From assembly GCA_019894875.1 (NCBI GenBank), contig JAGXNR010000051.1, positions 1-18,408 of the forward strand: a DNA stretch of 18,408 nt, written 5' to 3'. The DNA comes from Promethearchaeota archaeon (GTDB lineage Archaea > Asgardarchaeota > Lokiarchaeia > Sigynarchaeales > SOKP01). Under the pieces are notes generated by a model that was given only the letters and a program-made list of their open reading frames with translations, was not told the DNA's origin and searched no databases. Every line of letters starts with the position of its first letter. The stretch's first letter is position 1. The position numbers and the translations under genes are program-made. Positions 563 through 18,330 of the stretch are shown here, in pieces.

Positions 563-835
563 CTAAAAGCGGAAATCTCCTCTTCCTCCTCTATTATAAG
601 GATTAGGAGGAGCTTTTTCGGTCACAACTACGTTGCTTGCTTGAGGTCCTTTTTGTCCCTCAGTAATTTCAAATTCAACTTTGTCGTTTTCATTTAAGGT
701 CTTATATTCGTCATCCCTTCCACTTAACGCTGTGTAATGAACAAATATATCAGCCCCTTCTTCAGAGTTTATAAATCCATAACCTTTTCGGCTATTAAAC
801 CATTTTACTGTTCCATTTACCAATTTTAAAACCAA
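563..835 (-). CDS. Cold-shock-domain (CspA-like) RNA-binding protein
   Basis: This is a small single-domain protein of the bacterial CspA type, a five-stranded OB fold that binds single-stranded RNA or DNA and acts as an RNA chaperone in the cytoplasm. The RNP1 motif KGYGFI is at residues 17-22 and the RNP2 motif around DIFVH at 29-33, both with the expected aromatic residues. After the domain there is a short Pro/Gly/Arg tail (about 75-90) containing an RGG-like RGGRG motif, an addition beyond the usual 65-70 residues that may strengthen RNA binding. The start is unusual: the longest frame begins with TTG at 835, but the family normally starts just before VNGTVKWF. A second TTG at 823 (residue 5) would give an 86-residue protein with the canonical N-terminus. 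No Shine-Dalgarno sequence precedes either codon. The family call is firm; the exact start is not. Confidence 0.93.
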
Positions 836-7130: not shown

Positions 7131-9983
7131 ATGGTTGAAAAGATGTACAACTACAAGAAAAGTGAAAAAAAATGGCAGAAGAAATGGGCCGAAGCAAGTC
7201 TATTTGAGGCGGATAAAGATGAGAGAGAAAAGTATTTCATCAATTTCCCCTTCCCTTATCTTAATGGACCTCCGCATTTAGGTCATGGTTACAGTTTATT
7301 GAAAGCGGAAGCAATGGCTAGATTTCAAAGAATGATGGGGAAAAATGTATTGTTTCCATTTGCTTTTCATGCAACTGGTGAACCTATTGTAGGTGTTGCA
7401 AAAAGAGTCAAAGCAGGTGATGAATCTCAAATTAGAACTTTGAAGATATCAGGAGTCCTTGATAAAGAAATTCCTAAATTTAAAGATCCAGAATATATTG
7501 TTGAATATTTCAAACAGAAATGGATTGAGGCAACGACTACATTAGGATTGGCTATCGACTGGCGCAGGCAATTTGTCACAACACAATTGACTCCAACTTT
7601 TTCAAAATTTGTAGAATGGCAATATAGGAAATTGAAAAAAGATGGTTATGTTATTCAAGGATCACATCCTGTAATTTGGTGTCCCGCAGATCAAAATCCA
7701 ACTGGAGATCACGATCGATTGGAAGGAGAAGGGGCTCGTGTAGTGGATTATATCGTTATAAAATTTTATTCTGAGATACATCATGCTTTTTTCTTGCCTG
7801 CTACTTTGAGGCCTGAAACAACTTATGGGGTCACTAATATGTTTATACATCCTGAAGCTTCATATGTAAGAGTAACCCTCAATGGTGAAAAGGTTATCAT
7901 ATCTAAAGATGCCGTAATTAAGTTTCAAGATCAGCAATTTGAAGTTGGGGATATCGAGGAAATAGCCACTAACGAATTAATTGGGACCTATCTTACTAAT
8001 CCAGTTAATAATAAACAGGTGATAGTTTTGCCTGGTGATTTCATAGATACAGCGGGTTCAACTGGAGTTGTTATGTCCGTGCCAGCACATGCACCTATGG
8101 ATTGGATTACTTTAAAAAATTTACAAGATAGTCCTGATAGTTTGAATAATTGGGGTATAAGTCGGGATGAATTAACTTCGATCAAGCCAATTGCCTTGAT
8201 CAAAGTAGAGGATTATGGTGAATTTCCTGCTGGTGAGGAAATCGAGAATCGTAATATCCATTCTCGTGATGATCCGGAGGTAAAAGAAGCAACTAGAATA
8301 ATATACAGAAAAGAACATCATTCTGGGAAACTGCTTGCAATAACTGGAAAATACAAAGATATGACGGTAGAGTCTGTAAAAGACAAGGTTATTGATGATT
8401 TTGTTAGCGATAATATTGCGTTCATTTTAAAAGAACCTGGAGAACCTGTTGTTTGCCGATGTGGTACTAGAAATCATGTTAAATATCTAGAAAACCAGTG
8501 GTTCTTGAAATTCTCAGATGCAGAGTGGAAAGACAAAACTCACAAATTGTTGGATAAAATGGATGTTTTTCCAACTGAAGCCCGAAAAGCATTCCACAAT
8601 ACAGTTGATTGGTTAGAAAATAAAGCATGCGCACGTAGATCTGGTTTAGGGACCCCTATGCCTTGGGATACTGATTGGATAATAGAAACATTGTCAGATT
8701 CAGTCATCTATATGGCATATTATATCATTTCCAAATATGTCAATGAGGGGCGATTTACAATAGAAAACTCTACTGATGATGTATTTGAGTTTATATTATT
8801 GGGTAATGGTGATCCAAAAACTATTAGTGATGAAGTTGGTATTGATCACTCATTGTTAGAAGAAATTCGAGAAGAATTGGTTTATTTCTATCCTTTTAAT
8901 TTAAGAACATCAGGTAAGGACTTACTAAATAATCATTTGACTTTTATGTTAATGCATCATACTGCAATTTTTCACGAAGATTTTTGGCCATTGGGTGTGG
9001 CTGTCAATGGTTACGTAGCAATTGAAAGTGTAAAAATGTCTAAAAGGCTTGGAAACTTCAAAACTATTGAAGATGTTGTCAAAGCTTTTGGTGTAGATGC
9101 AACAAGATTGGGGTTCTTGATCGCTGGAGAGGGATTGAAAGATGCTTCTTTCTCTTTAGCTGAGGCTGAAAGTTATGTCAAATGGATCCAGAACTTGTAT
9201 GAAATGGCTTTAGAAGAGGTAGATGATGAAGAAGAAAAACAAATTGACCAATGGTTAGTGTCACGTATTCAAAATCATATTGGGACAACTCTAAATTCCC
9301 TTTCTAAAATGAACACGAGAAGTGCTTTTCAATCAGCATATCATGAAACCCTACAGGATATCCGCTGGTATTTGAAAAGACGAGGATCAAAAGGTCCAGC
9401 ATATTCATATGCACTGGAAAATATTATTTTGCTAGTTTGTCCTTTCATTCCCCATGTTGTTGAAGAAATTTGGGCTGTTAAAGGAAATTCCGGTTTTGCT
9501 TCTAGTGCTTCATTTCCTACTGTTGATGAAACCAAAATTATCAAGGATTCAGAATATGCTGAAAAATTCTTAGATTCATTTATTGATGATATTAAAAATT
9601 TGAAAAGTTTCTTGTTAGAAAAGGAAAATAAACAATTGGAAAAGATTGAAGTGTTCATTGCTCCAAAATGGATGTATCCAATTTATTCTGAAGCATATGA
9701 AAATGGGTTGAATGACATAATTAAGCGGGTAATGCAAAATCCTGATATAAGAAAAATTGGAAAAAATGCGGTTAAATATGCTCAGAATTTAGTGAAAGAT
9801 GGGGCACCTCCTGATTTTCCATGGAGCCAATCTGCTGCTATAAAAATCCTGAATGAAGCAAAAGAATATATTGAGAAGCGAGTAAATGCATCGATTGAGA
9901 TTATAGATGCTGAAAATTCATCCCATGTAAAAGCAGCAGCAGCAATACCTAGGAGACCCGGTATCAACTTTATTATGCAATAA
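7131..9983 (+). CDS. leuS: Leucyl-tRNA synthetase, archaeal type
   Basis: This class Ia aminoacyl-tRNA synthetase attaches leucine to tRNA-Leu in the cytoplasm. It has the HIGH-type motif HLGH (49-52) in the archaeal context FPYLNGPPHLGHGY, and FHATGEPIVGVAKRV (79-93). The CP1 editing domain is seen in LRPETTYG (226-233) and in SVPAHAPMDW (316-325), whose aspartate D324 is expected to bind the amino group of mischarged amino acid. C442-x-C444 and the QWFLKF segment (456-461) follow. KMSK is at 635-638, and an anticodon-binding helical domain plus C-terminal tail run from about 700. The 950-residue length matches archaeal enzymes (about 940-970). Start: ATG at 7131, with an alternative ATG four codons later at 7143. 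Neither has a Shine-Dalgarno sequence. It converges on the GTPase gene 14 bases downstream. Confidence 0.97.
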   Translation: MVEKMYNYKKSEKKWQKKWAEASLFEADKDEREKYFINFPFPYLNGPPHLGHGYSLLKAEAMARFQRMMGKNVLFPFAFHATGEPIVGVAKRVKAGDESQIRTLKISGVLDKEIPKFKDPEYIVEYFKQKWIEATTTLGLAIDWRRQFVTTQLTPTFSKFVEWQYRKLKKDGYVIQGSHPVIWCPADQNPTGDHDRLEGEGARVVDYIVIKFYSEIHHAFFLPATLRPETTYGVTNMFIHPEASYVRVTLNGEKVIISKDAVIKFQDQQFEVGDIEEIATNELIGTYLTNPVNNKQVIVLPGDFIDTAGSTGVVMSVPAHAPMDWITLKNLQDSPDSLNNWGISRDELTSIKPIALIKVEDYGEFPAGEEIENRNIHSRDDPEVKEATRIIYRKEHHSGKLLAITGKYKDMTVESVKDKVIDDFVSDNIAFILKEPGEPVVCRCGTRNHVKYLENQWFLKFSDAEWKDKTHKLLDKMDVFPTEARKAFHNTVDWLENKACARRSGLGTPMPWDTDWIIETLSDSVIYMAYYIISKYVNEGRFTIENSTDDVFEFILLGNGDPKTISDEVGIDHSLLEEIREELVYFYPFNLRTSGKDLLNNHLTFMLMHHTAIFHEDFWPLGVAVNGYVAIESVKMSKRLGNFKTIEDVVKAFGVDATRLGFLIAGEGLKDASFSLAEAESYVKWIQNLYEMALEEVDDEEEKQIDQWLVSRIQNHIGTTLNSLSKMNTRSAFQSAYHETLQDIRWYLKRRGSKGPAYSYALENIILLVCPFIPHVVEEIWAVKGNSGFASSASFPTVDETKIIKDSEYAEKFLDSFIDDIKNLKSFLLEKENKQLEKIEVFIAPKWMYPIYSEAYENGLNDIIKRVMQNPDIRKIGKNAVKYAQNLVKDGAPPDFPWSQSAAIKILNEAKEYIEKRVNASIEIIDAENSSHVKAAAAIPRRPGINFIMQ

Positions 9984-9997
9984 AATTTTGGTCTAAC

Positions 9998-11191
9998 CTA
10001 TAACTTATTTTTTTGTATTGCTTTTAAAATATCTAAGTATTTTATTATATCTTTCGTATCACTTTTACCTATACAGAAGTCTAATTGTTTAGTAAAAAAA
10101 TTATTAAATAACTTCAATTGGGGACTAGAAATTACAAATTGAGAACCCTCTTCAATCTGTTTGTCAAATATAGTGTCTTTAACCTCTTCAATATTATTGT
10201 TGAGAATTTGAAGAGCAACCCATTCAAACAGCTCCCCAACGTTTTGATTTGTTTTTGCGGAGGTTTCCATATAATAAACCCCTAATTCTTTCGCTAAGTC
10301 CATACCTTCTTCGGTTGAAATTTGTCTCTCATCATTCAAATCTGCTTTATTCCCGACAAGAATTAGAATAATTTTTGGCAAAGCGACCTTATTGATTATA
10401 TCGTACCACTTTCTTACATTTTCAAATGATTCTTTATTTGTCAAATCAAAAGCAATAATACCTGCTCGTGAATCAGTTAAGTAATCTGGCCACAAGCGTT
10501 GGAATTGGTGCTGTCCTGCTAAATCCCAGATCATAAACTTTACAGAAGTATTTAATTCCTTAAATTCACATTCCTTTTTAGAAATAAACGTTCCTATCGT
10601 TGCTTTATAATCTGCTTTAAATAATCCATGAACATATCTTTGAACCATGCTTGTTTTACCTACCCCGCCATCTCCAATTAACGATAGCTTATAAACATAA
10701 TCTGGGGAATGAGCTTTACTTTGATAATAATCTAACTTACGTTTTAGTTTTTCAACTTCTGAATCTCTTTTAATTTTAGGAATAACCGGGCTTACGGGTA
10801 GTTCCCCATCAATAATTCGTGCTACTTTATCAGCTGCTAAAAATGTATACGGAAAAACATCATCAACGAAAGTTGCAGGATGAAGAATTGAAACTAACAC
10901 ATAATCTGAACCAGATTCACAAAAAATAAATCTATATTTATCGGTATCAAAGGTTCCAGCACCAAAAGTACCTAAATCAAAATCTTGAGTTAATTTTTTA
11001 AGTATTACCTCAACCAAAGAACTGAATGCTCCTACAAATTTTTTTTCCTCGATTTCTTTAGAATCTCGTGTTAAAATATCAATTACTAAACCGTCTCTTC
11101 CAACAACAAGAACTGAAATTAATGAATCTCCTACTTCTTGCATGTACCACTTAAATAATGCTAATAATTTCTCTTTATCTATATAAACCAT
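9998..11191 (-). CDS. Roadblock/LC7-like domain fused to a Ras/Rab-like small GTPase
   Basis: Residues about 1-128 have the alternating strand-helix pattern of a roadblock/LC7 domain (LISVLVVGRDGLVIDIL, a long helix, then FGAGTFDTDKYRFIF and DYVLVSIL). A charged helical linker (about 138-158) leads to a complete Ras-superfamily GTPase domain at about 165-335: G1 GDGGVGKTS (173-181), switch I threonine T198, G3 WDLAGQ (222-227) with the Ras Gln61 equivalent Q227, G4 NKAD (281-284) and G5 ETSAK (309-313). The WDLAGQ, ETSAK and YxATIG features are Rab/Ras-like. About 60 further residues form a helical tail with no C-terminal cysteine, so no prenylation is expected. Roadblock proteins act as scaffolds or regulators of such GTPases (MglB with MglA, Ragulator with Rag), and here both parts are one chain. 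Asgard archaea have many such GTPases. It follows the giant kinase on the same strand with a 151-base gap. AAAGG about 11 bases before the ATG is a weak ribosome-binding site. Confidence 0.93.
   Translation of the reverse strand: MVYIDKEKLLALFKWYMQEVGDSLISVLVVGRDGLVIDILTRDSKEIEEKKFVGAFSSLVEVILKKLTQDFDLGTFGAGTFDTDKYRFIFCESGSDYVLVSILHPATFVDDVFPYTFLAADKVARIIDGELPVSPVIPKIKRDSEVEKLKRKLDYYQSKAHSPDYVYKLSLIGDGGVGKTSMVQRYVHGLFKADYKATIGTFISKKECEFKELNTSVKFMIWDLAGQHQFQRLWPDYLTDSRAGIIAFDLTNKESFENVRKWYDIINKVALPKIILILVGNKADLNDERQISTEEGMDLAKELGVYYMETSAKTNQNVGELFEWVALQILNNNIEEVKDTIFDKQIEEGSQFVISSPQLKLFNNFFTKQLDFCIGKSDTKDIIKYLDILKAIQKNKL
10008..10014 (+). terminator. Candidate oligo-T terminator of leuS inside the convergent GTPase gene
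   Basis: Seven T on the plus strand lie 25 bases past the leuS stop, within the last codons of the GTPase gene on the other strand. leuS transcripts would therefore probably end antisense to the GTPase 3' end. This rests on base composition and position only. Confidence 0.35.
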
Positions 11192-11342: not shown

Positions 11343-14300
11343 TTAACTCGTGTTTTTTTTGTTTTTTAATATTGGTAAGGAGAAATAGAATGTTGAACCT
11401 TTATCTTTTCCTTTGGATTCCACCCAAATATTTCCGCCATGAAGTTCAACAATATTCTTCGAAATATAAAGACCCAGTCCCGAACCTTCAGAAATAACGT
11501 CTAATCCCTTTCCGTATCGTTCGATTTTTCCAAATTTTTGGAAAATCTTAGACATCTCATCTTTAGTTAAACCTATACCATTATCGTTTATTGAAAGTAT
11601 ATAGAAATCATTCTTTATTTCTGAATTTATTTTAATTATACCCCCAGAGGGAGTATATTTTATTGCATTGCTTAATAAATTTATTATAACGTCATATATT
11701 CTTTCCTTTTCAAATAAGGTTTTCATGTCTTCTTGTATTTCTAATAGTAGTTTATGATTTCTAATTTCTAATAATCCTTGTAAATCTCTTATACAAAATC
11801 TGACTAAAAATGCTAAATTCTCTTCTGATTTATTCAACACAACTTCTCCAGACTCTAATTTGGAAGTTTCTATAAGGTCTTTTATTAATGTTTCAAGTCG
11901 GGAACATCCTTGTTTTATTTCATGTAGTATCGAGATTGTGTAGAAATCAAGCCAATCATAGTGCTGACTCAAAAGTAAATCTGCATAACCTTTTATTGAA
12001 ACTAAAGGTGTCTTTAATTCATGTGATGTTCTACTCAGTAATTCGGATTTTAATCTACTCACTTCTTTTAGTTCTTCTTCCACTTCTTTCTTAAGTGTAA
12101 TATCAATAAATGTGGAAAGTGCTGCATTCTCTCCTTGGTAAATAATAGGTTTTGTAAATATTTCAATCCATTTAATTTTACCAGAGTTTATAAGTATTCT
12201 AAACAAATATCGATTCTCCGAATCAACACCACCATTTTGGGTTTTATTAAACATTTCAACAATTATAGATAATTCTTCTTTATCTATTTTTTTAAACGCT
12301 TCTTCTAAAGTCAAGAGATCGATTTCTTCCAAAGTACAACCCAATATCTCAGACACAGCGGTATTAGCAAATTTTATAAATCCATCCTGTTGAATTATCA
12401 TTCCCATGGAGGATTGTTCTGCTATTGTTCTGAATTTTTCTTCAGATTCTTTCAATTTTTGTTCGGTTTCCTTTCTGGTTGTTATATCTAAAACAGAAAC
12501 AATGACTTTTGACCAAGTTGTTTCGGATCCAGGAATAACCAATGTCCTCATATAAATGTAAACTGCATCACCTGTGATAGTTTCAGTAACAACTTCACAT
12601 TCGAAAGTTGTATTCCCCTCAATTAAAGATAATAGTTCAAGTTTATTAGTCATGAGCACTTCGGAAGATGAATGTCGATATAAGTCTTTTTCAGATTTAA
12701 TTTTCAAATCAAATATTTCTTCCTTGCTATTGGCTTTGTATAACTCAACAGCTTTATTATTTACATCTATTAATCTGATCTTAGAGATACAGTTTATAAC
12801 CTCTTCAGGATATTCTTTAAAGTATTTTTCAAAATCGATGATTCCTGAAGCTTTTAACTTATCTACATACCTTTTCAAATCAGTATAATCTTGTTCTAAT
12901 AAACCAATTGGAGAATTTTCAAATAATTCACGATATCTTTCCTCAGATTCTATTAATTTTTGTTCTACTTCTTTTCTATCATTAATATCTATAACAGAAC
13001 CAATTGTCTCAAAAGGATTTCCTTCTTTGTCTTTTATTAGTGTATGTTCGTCCTGCATCCATCGATAGGACCCATCATTCAATTTAAAGCGATAATCGTA
13101 TTTAGTGTGTTCTTCTTCAAATAATTTTGAAAGGGTAGAAAGAACATATTCTTTATCATCAGGATGGATATGATTGAGCCAAAATTCTGAATCATTTATA
13201 AAATCTTCTGAGGAATATCCCCATTTCTTTTGGACATTATTACTAATAAAAGTAGCTCCATAATCTCCTGAAACTTTTGATGTATATAATATTGTCGGAC
13301 TTGAAGAAACAAGATATTTAAATCTCTCTTCGGATTCTTTTAATTTCTGTTCAGCATTCATTCGATCAGTAATGTCAATTAAACTGATGAGAACCAGATC
13401 TTCTCCATCAAATTTCAATGGGACAGTAGAAATAAGTAAATGTACTTTATCACTGTCACCACCAGGTAATAAATATAGTGTAGCTTCTACATTTATATGA
13501 GGGTTTTTAGTTTTAAATGTATCGAGAACAGTATTGCGAATTATACAGTCTTGGCAATACTCACTAAAACCACATCCTCTAGGATCTTTGATTGAATATA
13601 AACAACGAAGAGCTTCACCTCCGTGAATACCAAATACTTCCTTCTCCTGACGATCTGTTAATTTTAATGCAAATTTATTAATTTTTCTAATCCTCCGTTC
13701 ATTATCTACTAGAAGTATTGCTATTGGGGTATAATTATAAATAGCAGTCAATTCAGCTTCACTCTGCTGAATTTTAATTTCAGATAGTTTGCGATCTGTG
13801 ATGTCTTGGAATGAATTAATTAAGGTAATCTGATCGCCCATTTTTTGAGCAATAGAAGTTAATGATCCCCAAAAAATTGATCCATCTTTACGTTTAAATT
13901 CTGCTTCAAAATCTTTTACTAATCCACTTCTAAGTAATTCAACAAATTTCTCTCTATCACTTGGTAATCGATATAAATCTATAACCGGAGTTTCCAAAAA
14001 TTCTTCTTTTGAATTATAGCCAAAATCTTGAAAGGACGTGGAATTACATTCGATCATTTTCCCTTCAGGAATAGTAATAGAAATTCCAACAGGTACAGCT
14101 TCTATTAAATCTTTCAATCGTTTCTCTGATTCTCGGATCTTTTCCTCAGCTTTTTTACGTTCAGTAATATCACGATTGATAGCCACTGCTCCAGTAGGCT
14201 TTCCTGTAATATCTTCAATCAATGTGACAGAAGAAAGTATGTTTAAAGGCAAGCCATCCCTATTATATTGAATAACCTCTCCCTTCCAAGATCCATCTTC

Positions 14301-17252
14301 AAGAAATTGTTGTATTACATCTTCTTCTTTATCATTAGGATATTCAACTGCTATAGTGTCTCTAATATTTTTTCCAATTACTTCTTCTTCATCCCATCCA
14401 TATATAGATTCTGCTGCATTGTTCCAGGTTATAACATTAAAATCTAAATCGGTAGATATAATAGCATCAGAAACTTCATCAACTAACCTCGCTTGATACT
14501 GTATCTTTTCTTCTGCTTTTTTACGCTCAGTAGTATCTCTTACTAAGCTAACAATTCCAATTTTCTCACGGCTTTCATCCCTAAGCTCACTAATTGCATG
14601 TTCAGTAGGAAATATAGTTCCATTTTTCCGTTTCATTCTAAATTCAAAATTGTGAATATTACCAAATTGTTGAAGCTTCGGGAGAACTGCTTTTTGAAAG
14701 GCTTTAAGTGAATTATTATCGATATGTAAGAACGCACTTGTACGACCAATTATTTCATCTCGTGAATACCCAAACATTTTCTCTGATATGGGATTGCAAT
14801 CAATAATTTTGGGAGGAATTTCATCATCTAAGATAAATATTGCATCTTGAAGATTATATAGAGTAGTTTCAAGTAATTGTTTACTTTCTCTTAACTCATT
14901 TTCAGCTTTTTTTCGTTCAGTAATATCTTCTCCCGAGCTCAAAAGACCAGTTATTATTCCATTTGAATCTCTGAATAAAATAGTAGACCAAGCAATTAGT
15001 TTTTCTTCTCCTTTTTTAGTCAATACAAGATTCTCATAAAATGGTATTACATCAATCTCACCTTTCAACAATTTCTTGAAATAATCTTTTACTCTTTCTC
15101 TCCCCTGTGTAGGTAGGCAATTATCAAACCAGTTCTTACCAATTAATTCCCCTTCATCCCATCCCAAAATATCATTTCCTTTTTGATTTATCACTGATAT
15201 ATTTCCGTCTCTATCTAACGCAACTATAACTACATTTACCAGATTTAAATACATTTCTGCTTTTTCTCTTTCTTGGTGTACTTTTTCTTCGATTCTCTTA
15301 CGCTCTGTTATATCAATTATTATACCTCTTACTCCTACTTTATTTTTTACTTTATCATAGAATTTTTGGTTATATTCTGTTACACATCTAATTTTACCAT
15401 TTTTACAAATAATACGATATTCTCTCTTGTCAGTTTCATCTATACGTTCATGAAATTTTTTAACTTTTTCATCAATTTCTTGAATATCATCAGGATGGAT
15501 GATCTGGTTCCATTTTATTCGCCCCGAGACAAAATCATCTTCATTATATCCGGTAATATTTTCAACCTCTCCATGAAAAAACGCGGCTGTAAAATCTTGA
15601 TAACCTTGAAATGCTATTCCTTGAAAATTTTCGATGAAACTACGATATTTAACTTCCGAACTTTCCAGTTCTTGTTCTGCTTTCTTACGCTCAGTTATAT
15701 CTCTAAATAAACCTACAATTTTCTTTTTATTATCTTTTTCAATTAGTTGACCACTTGAAGAAACTGTTACATAATGACCTTCTTTGTGCTGAATTCTGAA
15801 TTCTACCGATCCAGCTTCTCCTGTGTTCACAACATAATTTTGATTCTTTAGGAGTTCTTCCTGATCTTCTGGATGTATAAATCTAAAAGCATTTTGATTT
15901 ATCATTTCATCTGGTTTATAACCTAACATATCAATTGTCTGAGGACTTAAATAAGTGATTTTCCCATCCAAATCAAGTTCAAAAATTGCATCTAAAATGT
16001 TATCAATTAACGTGCGATATCTCTCCTCAGAGTCTTTCAATTTGTGCTCAGCTTCTTTCTTCTCGGTTATGTCAATCATGACGCTTAAAACTGCGGGTTT
16101 TCCCTCATATGTAATGGTTTTGGAGTAATCATCTACCCAAATATATTCTCCCGACTTCTTTATTCCCATAAATTGATACTGATCCATAACACCATCTAAT
16201 CCCTGTTGTTTCTTACTTGATTGTTCAGGCACAAATTTCCTATAATCAGGATGTATTATCTTAAGAAACTCTCCAGCTTTCCAATTTTTCATTTCTTCTA
16301 TTGAATACCCAGATAACATTTCCATTTGTCTATTAACATATTTAACAATTCCATTCTGGGCAATTACTATACCAACTAATGATTGATCAGAGATTGTTCT
16401 GAATTTCTCTTCAGATTCTTTTAATTCTTTAGTTCTTTCGATTACCCTTTTTTCTAATTCATTACTCAGTTTTTTATAATCTTCTATAGATTCTTTTAAT
16501 TTCTCTTCAGCTATTATGTGTTTTGTCACATCTTCAACTGTACATATCATCCCATCATATATTCCATCTTTATTTTTTGGAATTAGCCATCCAGATTGAT
16601 AACTTTGTCTACCTCTGGGTGTTGTAACGGGTACAGCATCATAATAAACAGGGTTTAATTTATCTTTAGCTTTTAAATAGTAAGGTTTAAAATATTTCAG
16701 TGTAATTTCTGAGAAATCTTTCAAAACATTGGCACCAACAATTTTATCTGCAGGTATTCCTGCAATATTTTCCATTCCTTTATTTGTAAAAAATATTATG
16801 TCATCCCTATTAGTGACCCAGATCCCATTGATGACGCCATTTAGTATGGTTTTGTAAAACTCTTCTGTTTCTTCTAATAGTTGTTCAGGTTTTAGAATTA
16901 TTAAAAAACCCTTTGAATCATAAAAATTATTTTTTAATTTACAATAAAATTTAAAATTTTTATAGATCCCATTCGCATGTTTTAATCTTAACATTTGAAC
17001 AACTGGCTTACCTTCAGTACATTTATCTAATATATTAATTGCAGTTTCGAGGTCTTCATACCATACATAATTTAACCAAGAATTTCCTATTAAATCATCA
17101 CTCTTATACCCTAAAGATTTTATCAAGGGTAAATTATTGATGTATTCAATTTCACCTACTTGATTTATAATTATGGTTAGCTCATTTATACTTTCTGTAA
17201 TCAATTCACAATTTTCTTGAAAAACTTTTAATCTTTCTTTTGATTCAATCAT
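11343..17252 (-). CDS. Giant soluble histidine kinase with about 13 PAS domains
   Basis: This 1969-residue sensor kinase consists almost entirely of PAS modules, which I place at about 10-122, 131-248, 283-405, 410-527, 534-658, 663-783, 792-918, 920-1036, 1044-1160, 1166-1303, 1309-1431, 1438-1600 and 1605-1728. A coiled-coil segment (245-282) follows module 2, and DITERKKAE-type linkers join most of the others. HisKA follows with phosphorylated H1744 (RTSHELKTP), then HATPase with N box N1858/N1862, G1 box D1890-x-G1892-x-G1894 and G2 box G1923-x-G1925-x-G1927. Module 10 carries four cysteines (1217, 1227, 1233, 1236). Module 12 is enlarged, with an extra region DYTDLKRYVDKLKASGI. There are no membrane segments or receiver domain. 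GGTG lies eight bases before the ATG as a ribosome-binding site. Typical PAS kinases have one to six sensor modules. The partner regulator is not in the window, and the ligands are unknown. Confidence 0.93.
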   Translation of the reverse strand: MIESKERLKVFQENCELITESINELTIIINQVGEIEYINNLPLIKSLGYKSDDLIGNSWLNYVWYEDLETAINILDKCTEGKPVVQMLRLKHANGIYKNFKFYCKLKNNFYDSKGFLIILKPEQLLEETEEFYKTILNGVINGIWVTNRDDIIFFTNKGMENIAGIPADKIVGANVLKDFSEITLKYFKPYYLKAKDKLNPVYYDAVPVTTPRGRQSYQSGWLIPKNKDGIYDGMICTVEDVTKHIIAEEKLKESIEDYKKLSNELEKRVIERTKELKESEEKFRTISDQSLVGIVIAQNGIVKYVNRQMEMLSGYSIEEMKNWKAGEFLKIIHPDYRKFVPEQSSKKQQGLDGVMDQYQFMGIKKSGEYIWVDDYSKTITYEGKPAVLSVMIDITEKKEAEHKLKDSEERYRTLIDNILDAIFELDLDGKITYLSPQTIDMLGYKPDEMINQNAFRFIHPEDQEELLKNQNYVVNTGEAGSVEFRIQHKEGHYVTVSSSGQLIEKDNKKKIVGLFRDITERKKAEQELESSEVKYRSFIENFQGIAFQGYQDFTAAFFHGEVENITGYNEDDFVSGRIKWNQIIHPDDIQEIDEKVKKFHERIDETDKREYRIICKNGKIRCVTEYNQKFYDKVKNKVGVRGIIIDITERKRIEEKVHQEREKAEMYLNLVNVVIVALDRDGNISVINQKGNDILGWDEGELIGKNWFDNCLPTQGRERVKDYFKKLLKGEIDVIPFYENLVLTKKGEEKLIAWSTILFRDSNGIITGLLSSGEDITERKKAENELRESKQLLETTLYNLQDAIFILDDEIPPKIIDCNPISEKMFGYSRDEIIGRTSAFLHIDNNSLKAFQKAVLPKLQQFGNIHNFEFRMKRKNGTIFPTEHAISELRDESREKIGIVSLVRDTTERKKAEEKIQYQARLVDEVSDAIISTDLDFNVITWNNAAESIYGWDEEEVIGKNIRDTIAVEYPNDKEEDVIQQFLEDGSWKGEVIQYNRDGLPLNILSSVTLIEDITGKPTGAVAINRDITERKKAEEKIRESEKRLKDLIEAVPVGISITIPEGKMIECNSTSFQDFGYNSKEEFLETPVIDLYRLPSDREKFVELLRSGLVKDFEAEFKRKDGSIFWGSLTSIAQKMGDQITLINSFQDITDRKLSEIKIQQSEAELTAIYNYTPIAILLVDNERRIRKINKFALKLTDRQEKEVFGIHGGEALRCLYSIKDPRGCGFSEYCQDCIIRNTVLDTFKTKNPHINVEATLYLLPGGDSDKVHLLISTVPLKFDGEDLVLISLIDITDRMNAEQKLKESEERFKYLVSSSPTILYTSKVSGDYGATFISNNVQKKWGYSSEDFINDSEFWLNHIHPDDKEYVLSTLSKLFEEEHTKYDYRFKLNDGSYRWMQDEHTLIKDKEGNPFETIGSVIDINDRKEVEQKLIESEERYRELFENSPIGLLEQDYTDLKRYVDKLKASGIIDFEKYFKEYPEEVINCISKIRLIDVNNKAVELYKANSKEEIFDLKIKSEKDLYRHSSSEVLMTNKLELLSLIEGNTTFECEVVTETITGDAVYIYMRTLVIPGSETTWSKVIVSVLDITTRKETEQKLKESEEKFRTIAEQSSMGMIIQQDGFIKFANTAVSEILGCTLEEIDLLTLEEAFKKIDKEELSIIVEMFNKTQNGGVDSENRYLFRILINSGKIKWIEIFTKPIIYQGENAALSTFIDITLKKEVEEELKEVSRLKSELLSRTSHELKTPLVSIKGYADLLLSQHYDWLDFYTISILHEIKQGCSRLETLIKDLIETSKLESGEVVLNKSEENLAFLVRFCIRDLQGLLEIRNHKLLLEIQEDMKTLFEKERIYDVIINLLSNAIKYTPSGGIIKINSEIKNDFYILSINDNGIGLTKDEMSKIFQKFGKIERYGKGLDVISEGSGLGLYISKNIVELHGGNIWVESKGKDKGSTFYFSLPILKNKKNTS

Positions 17253-17406: not shown

Positions 17407-18330
17407 TTATTCTATTCCATAAACATGCCTTGGAGCAAGATATTTTGGAAATCTGTCTATTAAACTCAACCTAGCAAGATAACAGAGATGGCATTCATCT
17501 ACATACTCCTTCTCATGCCTAATATCAAATTCCTTAACTAATTGAGTAGGACCTCCTCGAATTAATGGACCACATATTGGGTGTGAAGCGGTATTATAAT
17601 TCTTGATTAATTCTGATAGTGGGGTTTCCCAAAAATTACCTATGCTTAATCCTTGACAAACATGTGCATTTCCAAAAGAATCCACATGGATTCTCCCAAG
17701 TCCCTTAAAATCTTCATATGGACATTTATTAAATTCATCCCATGATCTTTTTGGTAGACCTTTAACCAATTTCTCTACAGCTCTCCCCTTAAACATAGCT
17801 CCACCACTAATTACAGGTTCTCCTTTTTCTTGGTCTTTTTTAACTGTTGGTTCTTCAATACAAATTGTCATTGAAGGTAATTCTAGGTTATCAGAAGCCT
17901 TTTTGGCTATTTTTGACAGACTTTGATCTTGATTCTCATAATGAAATGTATCATCACTTATACTAACATTATCTACACCCAACTCAGAAAAGGGCTTAAG
18001 CCATATTTCCGCATCCTCAATACTCGTTGCCCAATATGAGTTTGTGACTACCCCAACTTTAAATCCATATTCTTTACTTAATTTTATTCCCTCAACCATA
18101 ATAGGATAATAAAGAAATGGTTCACCACCCTCAAAATATATCCATTCTACTGTTCCAATTTTTTTTGCCTCACCAAGAACTTCTTTAATTTGTCTTATCG
18201 TGAATGTTCCTTGAGAATTTGGGCTACAATATAAAAAACAATGGTCACACGCATAATTGCATGTATATGTTAATAAAAAATGGATACCTTTCAACATTTT
18301 TACTTCACTTTCAAATATGGGTTTTTTCAT
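17407..18330 (-). CDS. Radical SAM protein with C-terminal cysteine-rich (SPASM-like) region
   Basis: The radical SAM motif CNYACDHC places C24, C28 and C31 as ligands of the 4Fe-4S cluster that cleaves S-adenosylmethionine. GGEP (68-71) is the SAM-binding motif, and VVTNSYW (94-100) and VSISDD (122-127) fit later strands of the partial TIM barrel. A further cysteine, C35, is close to the first cluster. The C-terminal part has C203, C225, C253, C280 and C283, a pattern fitting one auxiliary iron-sulfur cluster as in SPASM/Twitch proteins. Those often modify peptides or proteins, but no precursor peptide gene is visible, and the substrate is unknown. At 307 residues it is short for a full two-cluster SPASM enzyme. 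The start is ATG at 18330; an ATG at codon 12, just before LKGIHFLLTYTC, is an alternative. No clear ribosome-binding site is present. Confidence 0.87.
   Translation of the reverse strand: MKKPIFESEVKMLKGIHFLLTYTCNYACDHCFLYCSPNSQGTFTIRQIKEVLGEAKKIGTVEWIYFEGGEPFLYYPIMVEGIKLSKEYGFKVGVVTNSYWATSIEDAEIWLKPFSELGVDNVSISDDTFHYENQDQSLSKIAKKASDNLELPSMTICIEEPTVKKDQEKGEPVISGGAMFKGRAVEKLVKGLPKRSWDEFNKCPYEDFKGLGRIHVDSFGNAHVCQGLSIGNFWETPLSELIKNYNTASHPICGPLIRGGPTQLVKEFDIRHEKEYVDECHLCYLARLSLIDRFPKYLAPRHVYGIE

What the first reader, a model, noticed from the sequence alone, without database searches (positions are those of the whole stretch)
9998..11191. Single-chain roadblock-GTPase lacking a lipid anchor
A roadblock/LC7-like domain and a Ras/Rab-like GTPase with all five G motifs and the catalytic Gln (Q227) sit in one 397-residue protein, with a helical linker and a 60-residue tail. 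In known systems (MglA-MglB, Rag-Ragulator) these parts are separate proteins. Fusion suggests a built-in regulator or dimerising platform, perhaps ancestral to eukaryotic GTPase-roadblock complexes. The absence of a C-terminal cysteine means membrane targeting, if any, must use the roadblock part or the tail.
Basis: partly seen in the sequence, partly recalled or inferred. Interest (0 to 1): 0.72.

Follow-up and report, generated by a model that had tools for sequence, protein, structure and literature searches.

The report
Lokiarchaeal roadblock–Rab fusion GTPase
The gene encodes a Rab-like molecular switch joined in one chain to a roadblock docking domain, one member of a large family of such fusions in Lokiarchaeia; fusions of this kind were already reported, so it is interesting but not a new kind of protein.

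Summary
The protein is real: a 397-aa gene on the minus strand (9998-11191). Residues 1-128 are a diverged roadblock/LC7 domain: alone it scores only E 0.089 against Pfam, but 18 of 20 family members match Robl_LC7 at E <= 1 (best 3.6e-9), all 8 PDB profile hits at E <= 10 are roadblock proteins, and the predicted order of helices and strands fits. Residues 165-335 are a Rab-like G domain with intact G motifs and Gln227. A 62-residue predicted helical hairpin follows, with no terminal cysteine.

The architecture is not new: roadblocks fused to Ras- and Rag-like GTPases are in print for Lokiarchaeum (2016) and MK-D1 (2024), as is the absence of terminal cysteines. Ancestry of eukaryotic complexes is not supported: 79 of 83 genomes of this class match at E <= 1e-60, and all 37 genomes at that level in a 148-genome phylum sample lie in the class (some database names disagree).

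Newer details: the window protein is a tailed offshoot of a widespread 337-aa fusion; its sister clade carries a DUF4268 module that, in the one member scanned, matches PADLOC's candidate defence family PDC-S11. Most likely function (inferred): a roadblock-dimerised Rab-like switch whose tail docks partners.

The parts
9998..11191 (-). Roadblock-Rab-like GTPase fusion gene, 397 aa, stop codon included
   Evidence: ORF; orthologues to 90-91% identity over the full length
10808..11191 (-). Residues 1-128: roadblock/LC7-like domain, helix-2 strands-helix-3 strands-helix
   Evidence: family and profile matches to Robl_LC7/MglB; predicted secondary structure
10700..10807 (-). Residues 129-164: linker with one predicted helix (145-158), low confidence
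   Evidence: mean identity 74% among 48 orthologues
10187..10699 (-). Residues 165-335: Rab-like G domain
10652..10675 (-). G1/P-loop GDGGVGKT (residues 173-180)
10511..10525 (-). G3 DLAGQ (residues 223-227) with catalytic Gln227
   Evidence: Gln in 58 of 59 rows
10340..10351 (-). G4 NKAD (residues 281-284)
10253..10264 (-). G5 TSAK (residues 310-313)
10001..10186 (-). Residues 336-397: tail, predicted helical hairpin, no convincing Pfam or PDB relative found, no terminal Cys
17407..18330 (-). Radical SAM protein, upstream on the same strand in 9 of 10 orthologous loci; context only, link to the GTPase not shown
11343..17252 (-). Multi-PAS histidine kinase directly upstream (151-nt gap); variable insertion between the radical SAM gene and the GTPase; context only

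Best explanation
A Lokiarchaeal paralogue of the roadblock-GTPase fusions already reported from Lokiarchaeum and MK-D1. Shown: one chain carries a roadblock-type domain, a linker, a Rab-like G domain with the residues for GTP binding and hydrolysis, and a clade-specific tail. Inferred: the roadblock domain pairs with that of a second copy or paralogue, as roadblock domains do in MglB and Rag/Ragulator, so that two Rab-like switches sit on one platform. The GTP state changes switch I/II, whose clade-specific WPDYLTDS stretch recruits an effector or GAP, while the tail hairpin docks a further partner. Membrane association, if any, would come through partners and not through prenylation. The tailed form most likely arose by duplication of the widespread 337-aa fusion followed by change at the C-terminus.
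For: Domains and motifs. Switch II in the window reads DLAGQHQFQRLWPDYLTDSR; the string WPDYLTDS is exact in 15 of the 19 close tailed rows of A5 and one or two letters off in the other 4, while the short forms mostly read RVRQSYLA-like and the DUF4268 forms RIRPSYLA-like, as expected of a conserved partner surface. The tail averages 70% identity among 48 orthologues but 5% in 4 rows of the DUF4268 clade, so it is a clade-specific module. The tree of 59 G domains puts the window in an 18-row all-fusion clade (95/87), inside which 7 tailed and 3 DUF4268 rows group together (100/99) apart from the short forms. Spread. Roadblock-mediated pairing of fused Rag-like GTPases as predicted in print: PMC10933270; MglB dimer acting on MglA: PMC11016934 (abstract).
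Against: No dimer was modelled and no interface tested. The relative placing of roadblock and G domain is unresolved (linker pLDDT under 50, pTM 0.61). The window's own roadblock domain is below Pfam's cut-off and was not modelled alone. Several paralogues coexist per genome, so homodimer and heterodimer cannot be told apart. The two diverged tailed forms L046 and L047 do not have the WPDYLTDS stretch (RIRPAYL), so tail and switch II did not simply change together. No experiment supports the function.
Confidence: 0.55

Rival explanations
1. Built-in regulator: the roadblock domain (or its dimer) acts on the attached G domain as GAP and/or exchange factor, an MglA-MglB pair fused into one chain.
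For: An MglB dimer acts as both GAP and GEF for MglA, and a functional complex was made from an artificially linked MglA-MglB construct co-expressed with MglB (PMC11016934, abstract). The window's switch I stretch 188-201 holds no Arg, so an outside helper for hydrolysis would be useful.
Against: The G domain is Rab-like: Ras family 165.8 bits, best PDB hits Rab6. The MglB residues named as essential for GAP action (section heading) were not mapped onto this domain. The linker is poorly predicted.
Confidence: 0.25
2. Part of a conservon-like module: the multi-PAS histidine kinase next door controls the roadblock-GTPase, as in actinobacterial conservons (kinase-like protein, roadblock, CvnC, GTPase; start of abstract of PMC13343842; passage of PMC4316618).
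For: In the window a kinase lies directly upstream on the same strand, and a large frame ending in a kinase-type C-terminus lies directly upstream in 4 of 10 orthologous loci (L002, L007, L008, L009). L003 has one directly downstream.
Against: Other orthologous loci have none beside the GTPase (L001, L004, L006, L010). Five genomes carry 13-32 HATPase_c matches each, and a shared insertion is not independent evidence. No CvnC-like gene was looked for.
Confidence: 0.07
3. Relic of the ancestor of eukaryotic Rag/Ragulator or Rab systems.
For: Roadblock plus Ras-family GTPase in an Asgard archaeon. Short paralogue L022 scores Gtr1_RagA 36.3 bits, above its cut-off of 22, and some close orthologues (P0007, P0013, P0016 and others) carry PF04670 in their precomputed domain lists. 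Some family entries are named as Heimdall-, Odin-, Hermod-, Hod- or Thorarchaeota.
Against: In the genomes sampled the fusion is confined to one class: 37 of 148 phylum genomes at E <= 1e-60, all 37 in the class. In 80 of the 110 non-class genomes all 67 roadblock matches (E <= 1e-5) lie in frames of 97-211 aa. Rag's roadblock is C-terminal (recalled); this one is N-terminal. No tree with eukaryotic sequences was made.
Confidence: 0.04

Closest known systems
Roadblock-GTPase fusions of Lokiarchaeum and MK-D1 (Dey et al. 2016 citing their ref. 23; Tran et al. 2024)
   Same: Roadblock and small GTPase in one chain (RB-GTPase order in Tran et al.), no terminal cysteines in MK-D1, Lokiarchaeia
   Different: Tran et al. 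describe the fused forms with their Rag-like class; this G domain is Rab-like by Pfam and PDB. The 62-residue tail and the DUF4268 sister form are not mentioned in the parts I read (sections 6, 7, 13 and passages; supplements not read).
MglA-MglB
   Same: Ras-family GTPase with roadblock partner
   Different: Two separate proteins; MglA has an Arg in switch I proposed as intrinsic Arg finger, none in the window's 188-201
Rag GTPases / Gtr1-Gtr2 with Ragulator
   Same: GTPase and roadblock domain in one chain, dimerising through the roadblock
   Different: Roadblock domain is C-terminal in Rag (recalled), N-terminal here; window's Gtr1_RagA score 20.7 bits, below the cut-off of 22, though some relatives pass it
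Eukaryotic Rab and Thor-Rab (7EZB)
   Different: Eukaryotic Rabs carry prenylatable C-terminal cysteines and no roadblock domain (recalled); Thor-Rab lacks the cysteines

Membership tests
Rab/Ras-family small GTPase | G1-G5 motifs and catalytic Gln | tested here: met
   Pfam Ras 165.8 bits against cut-off 21.6
Rab/Ras-family small GTPase | C-terminal prenylation cysteines (eukaryotic Rab) | tested here: not met
   Cys only at 91, 208, 373; 0 of 127 family proteins, window's own included, with Cys in the last 10 residues
Roadblock/LC7 domain | Match to the Robl_LC7 profile | tested here: inconclusive
   window alone E 0.089, 13.0 bits under the cut-off of 23; 18 of 20 family members match at E <= 1, best 3.6e-9
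Roadblock/LC7 domain | Relationship to solved roadblock proteins | tested here: met
   family profile: 8 of 8 PDB hits at E <= 10 are roadblock/MglB, best 2.2e-4; only 1 of the 8 is below 1e-3
Roadblock/LC7 domain | Order of helices and strands, with C-terminal helix | tested here: met
   (predicted only)
Roadblock/LC7 domain | Structural match of the domain to solved roadblock structures | tested here: inconclusive
   whole-model searches list only G-domain matches in the 50 rows shown; the domain was not modelled alone
Roadblock/LC7 domain | Dimerisation through the central helix | not testable with these tools
   no multimer prediction offered
Rag/Gtr GTPase | Gtr1_RagA profile | tested here: inconclusive
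   window 20.7 bits, under the cut-off of 22; some orthologues carry PF04670 precomputed and L022 scores 36.3 bits, far below its Ras score of 169.7
Rag/Gtr GTPase | Roadblock domain C-terminal to the G domain | tested here: not met
   roadblock is N-terminal; the tail is a helical hairpin
Asgard RB-GTPase fusion (Tran et al. 2024) | N-terminal roadblock plus GTPase in one chain | tested here: met
Asgard RB-GTPase fusion (Tran et al. 2024) | Direct orthology to a named MK-D1 protein | not tested

The most novel reading that the evidence does not exclude
Lokiarchaeia use the roadblock-Rab fusion as a general switch chassis and swap what hangs on its C-terminus: nothing (337 aa), a helical hairpin (the window), a module of about 200 residues (520-540 aa forms), or a DUF4268 module of the candidate defence family PDC-S11. 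The last would mean that a Rab-like switch drives an antiviral or nucleic-acid-sensing output, an immune use of the Rab fold outside eukaryotes.
Probability: 0.12. Interest if true: 0.65.

Novelty: new member of a known kind. Interest (0 to 1): 0.32.

Why it matters
It shows that the roadblock-Rab fusion is not a curiosity of one genome but a class-wide, multi-copy expansion. Because it looks confined to one class in the genomes sampled, it is a poor candidate for the ancestor of eukaryotic Rag or Rab complexes. The swapped C-terminal modules, above all DUF4268, give concrete handles on what Asgard small GTPases do.

Tried and rejected
Whole-protein Pfam scan missed the roadblock domain; scanning the domain alone and its family was needed. 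NCBIfam gave only the generic small_GTP domain above cut-off. PADLOC gave nothing for the window protein or for L028 at E <= 0.01. The tail had no Pfam match in the window protein (one weak DUF5092 match, E 0.031, in 1 of 13 members) and no PDB match better than E 0.41.

Structure searches of the whole models show only Rab G-domain matches in the 50 rows listed. The roadblock part is not represented there; it was not predicted alone, so that test is inconclusive and not evidence of absence.

Radical SAM partnership: the gene lies upstream in 9 of 10 orthologous loci (not in L009), but 35 of 83 class genomes have it at E <= 1e-60 while only 12 of 83 have the close 397-aa form. I do not claim a functional pair.

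One origin of all fusions: the tree needs 2 label changes because the long-branch fusion row L033 falls among single-domain rows; one clade is not rejected (p-AU 0.258). Not claimed either way. The tree holds 31 of the 59 fusion rows of A5 and 28 single-domain rows picked from search listings; one of these (L062) has an end branch of about 10 and may be a wrong frame. It was left in.

The small divergent gene beside the DUF4268 fusions (4 of 4 loci) looked longin-like by eye; Pfam (Robl_LC7 E 0.19 in one of four) and PDB (best E 0.33) do not support it.

Full report

THE N-TERMINAL DOMAIN. The window protein alone gives only a sub-threshold Robl_LC7 match (E 0.089, 13.0 bits) and none when scanned whole. 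The family carries the case: 18 of 20 members match Robl_LC7 at E <= 1 (best 3.6e-9), and a profile of the 20 finds 8 PDB sequences at E <= 10, all roadblock or MglB, the best at 2.2e-4 and the other seven above 1e-3. Two AlphaFold2 models (mean pLDDT 67 and 75) give helix, two strands, helix, three strands, helix over 6-128, the roadblock order with its C-terminal helix. The domain was not modelled or searched alone.

LINKER AND TAIL. The linker (129-164) carries a low-confidence helix. The tail (336-397) is predicted as a helical hairpin, mean pLDDT 82-87 over residues 361-390, with 70% mean identity among 48 orthologues and no convincing relative. Two more distant members (L046, L047) have a tail of similar length at about 30% identity. 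The protein has no cysteine within 20 residues of its end.

RELATIVES. Searching with residues 1-150 gave 190 proteins at E <= 1e-3 among 540 candidates; all 120 listed carry the Ras domain too. The search's length rule shuts out stand-alone roadblock proteins, so this shows that the fusion is stable, not that the domain occurs only fused. Of 17 named loci, 15 (L001-L015, L015 cut off by its contig end) carry the fusion, and all 15 are titled Lokiarchaeota or Lokiarchaeia; the other two are GTPase-only matches in Prometheoarchaeum. Among the protein clusters, some entries are named Heimdall-, Odin-, Hermod-, Hod- or Thorarchaeota. That speaks against strict confinement to Lokiarchaeia unless the bins are misnamed, which I could not check. 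Single genomes carry several such fusions: a 337-aa form, forms of 318-328 aa, forms with open frames of 522-537 aa that lie in tandem in L027 and L028, and one with a further P-loop domain in front.

DISTRIBUTION. In the class of genome G001 (home of locus L001, a Lokiarchaeota record), 79 of 83 genomes match the full-length profile A1 at E <= 1e-60. In a sample of 148 genomes of the phylum, 37 reach that level, and all 37 are in the class list. The sample's 38th class member reaches 1.6e-53; the best of the 110 others is 5e-57, a G-domain match. With a broader profile (A4) class members reach 7.9e-77 or better and the others 1.4e-64 at best. I tested 80 of the 110 non-class genomes further. 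The roadblock profile A2 found 67 matches at E <= 1e-5 in 40 genomes, all in open frames of 97-211 aa, too short for roadblock plus GTPase. In the truncated list of the fusion profile every row begins at position 78 or later.

THE BRANCH. In the tree of 59 G domains the window sits in a clade of tailed forms (7 rows, 100/97), grouped with 3 DUF4268 rows (100/99) inside an 18-row all-fusion clade (95/87) with the short forms. The close 397-aa form occurs in 12 of 83 class genomes; three more (G158, G135, G081) have a diverged full-length tailed form and at least one (G170) a partial one. Frames of 679-704 aa, the DUF4268 length, occur in 8 of 83; G135 and G081 hold both kinds. The DUF4268 module was confirmed by Pfam in L011 and L014 and aligned in four loci; L011, the only one scanned, matches PADLOC's PDC-S11 at 4.4e-56. 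In all four the Glu of the 'IENQ' stretch of two bacterial homologues is replaced (IINQ, IIPQ, ILPQ). If that is the catalytic Glu, which I recall and did not test, the module may be nuclease-dead, which speaks against a simple nuclease output. A search for 'DUF4268' with 'GTPase' returned one paper, on GmrSD (listing only).

NEIGHBOURHOOD. A radical SAM gene lies upstream on the same strand in 9 of 10 orthologous loci, a multi-PAS kinase lies directly upstream of the GTPase in 4 of 10, and a LeuRS gene faces the GTPase in 9 of 10, though not in L003. None of this shows function.

WHAT WAS KNOWN. Dey et al. [quoted passage not shown] 2016 (not held). Tran et al. 2024 (PMC10933270, sections 6, 7, 13) report RB-GTPase, GTPase-RB and longin fusions in MK-D1, absence of terminal cysteines, and no general operon linkage to regulators.

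MECHANISM. Most likely a roadblock-paired Rab-like switch (0.55), with the tail and the clade-specific switch II as docking surfaces; a built-in GAP/GEF is the main rival (0.25). Pairing, partner docking and membrane behaviour are inferred, not shown.

VERDICT. Real, correctly read as an architecture, over-read in novelty and ancestry. New member of a known kind; interest 0.32.

Noticed in passing
L011:8001-10028, L014:8001-10034 (also L012, L013): Sister clade of the window protein: the same roadblock-GTPase fused to a C-terminal DUF4268 module (Pfam in L011 and L014); L011, the only one scanned, matches PADLOC's candidate defence family PDC-S11 at 4.4e-56. The Glu of the bacterial IENQ stretch is replaced in all four.
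   Followed up: partly
window 7131-9983; L002, L004-L010 at the same place: The convergent LeuRS gene is 89% identical in L001 but only 31-34% in eight other orthologous loci, though the three proteins scanned (window, L002, L010) all score as archaeal LeuRS. Of 14 genomes searched, 10 have one match each at E <= 1e-60, of one type or the other, and 4 have none: an essential tRNA synthetase apparently replaced in place.
   Followed up: partly
L026-L029: Roadblock-GTPases with open frames of 522-537 aa, in tandem pairs in L027 and L028, whose G3 motif reads DxGAQ (Gly to Ala before the catalytic Gln) in all six rows examined. The C-terminal module of about 200 residues had no Pfam match at E <= 0.05 in the two L028 proteins scanned.
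   Followed up: no
L011:7377-7769, L012:4548-4955, L013:7367-7771, L014:7426-7854: A small gene of 131-143 aa, divergent and next to each of the four DUF4268 fusions, 67% mean column identity, no confident family: a candidate partner.
   Followed up: partly
L031:1116-2813: A small P-loop GTPase-like domain, then a weak roadblock match, then a Ras domain in one frame.
   Followed up: no
L038:364-1317: Ras domain behind a weak glycine-cleavage-H-like domain, E 0.022, below its cut-off.
   Followed up: no
window 563-835: Cold-shock-domain protein (PF00313, 2.5e-27) in a Lokiarchaeal window, kept in L001, L003 and L005.
   Followed up: no
window 11343-17252: A 1969-aa histidine kinase with about ten PAS-type repeats, between the radical SAM gene and the GTPase in only some relatives.
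   Followed up: no
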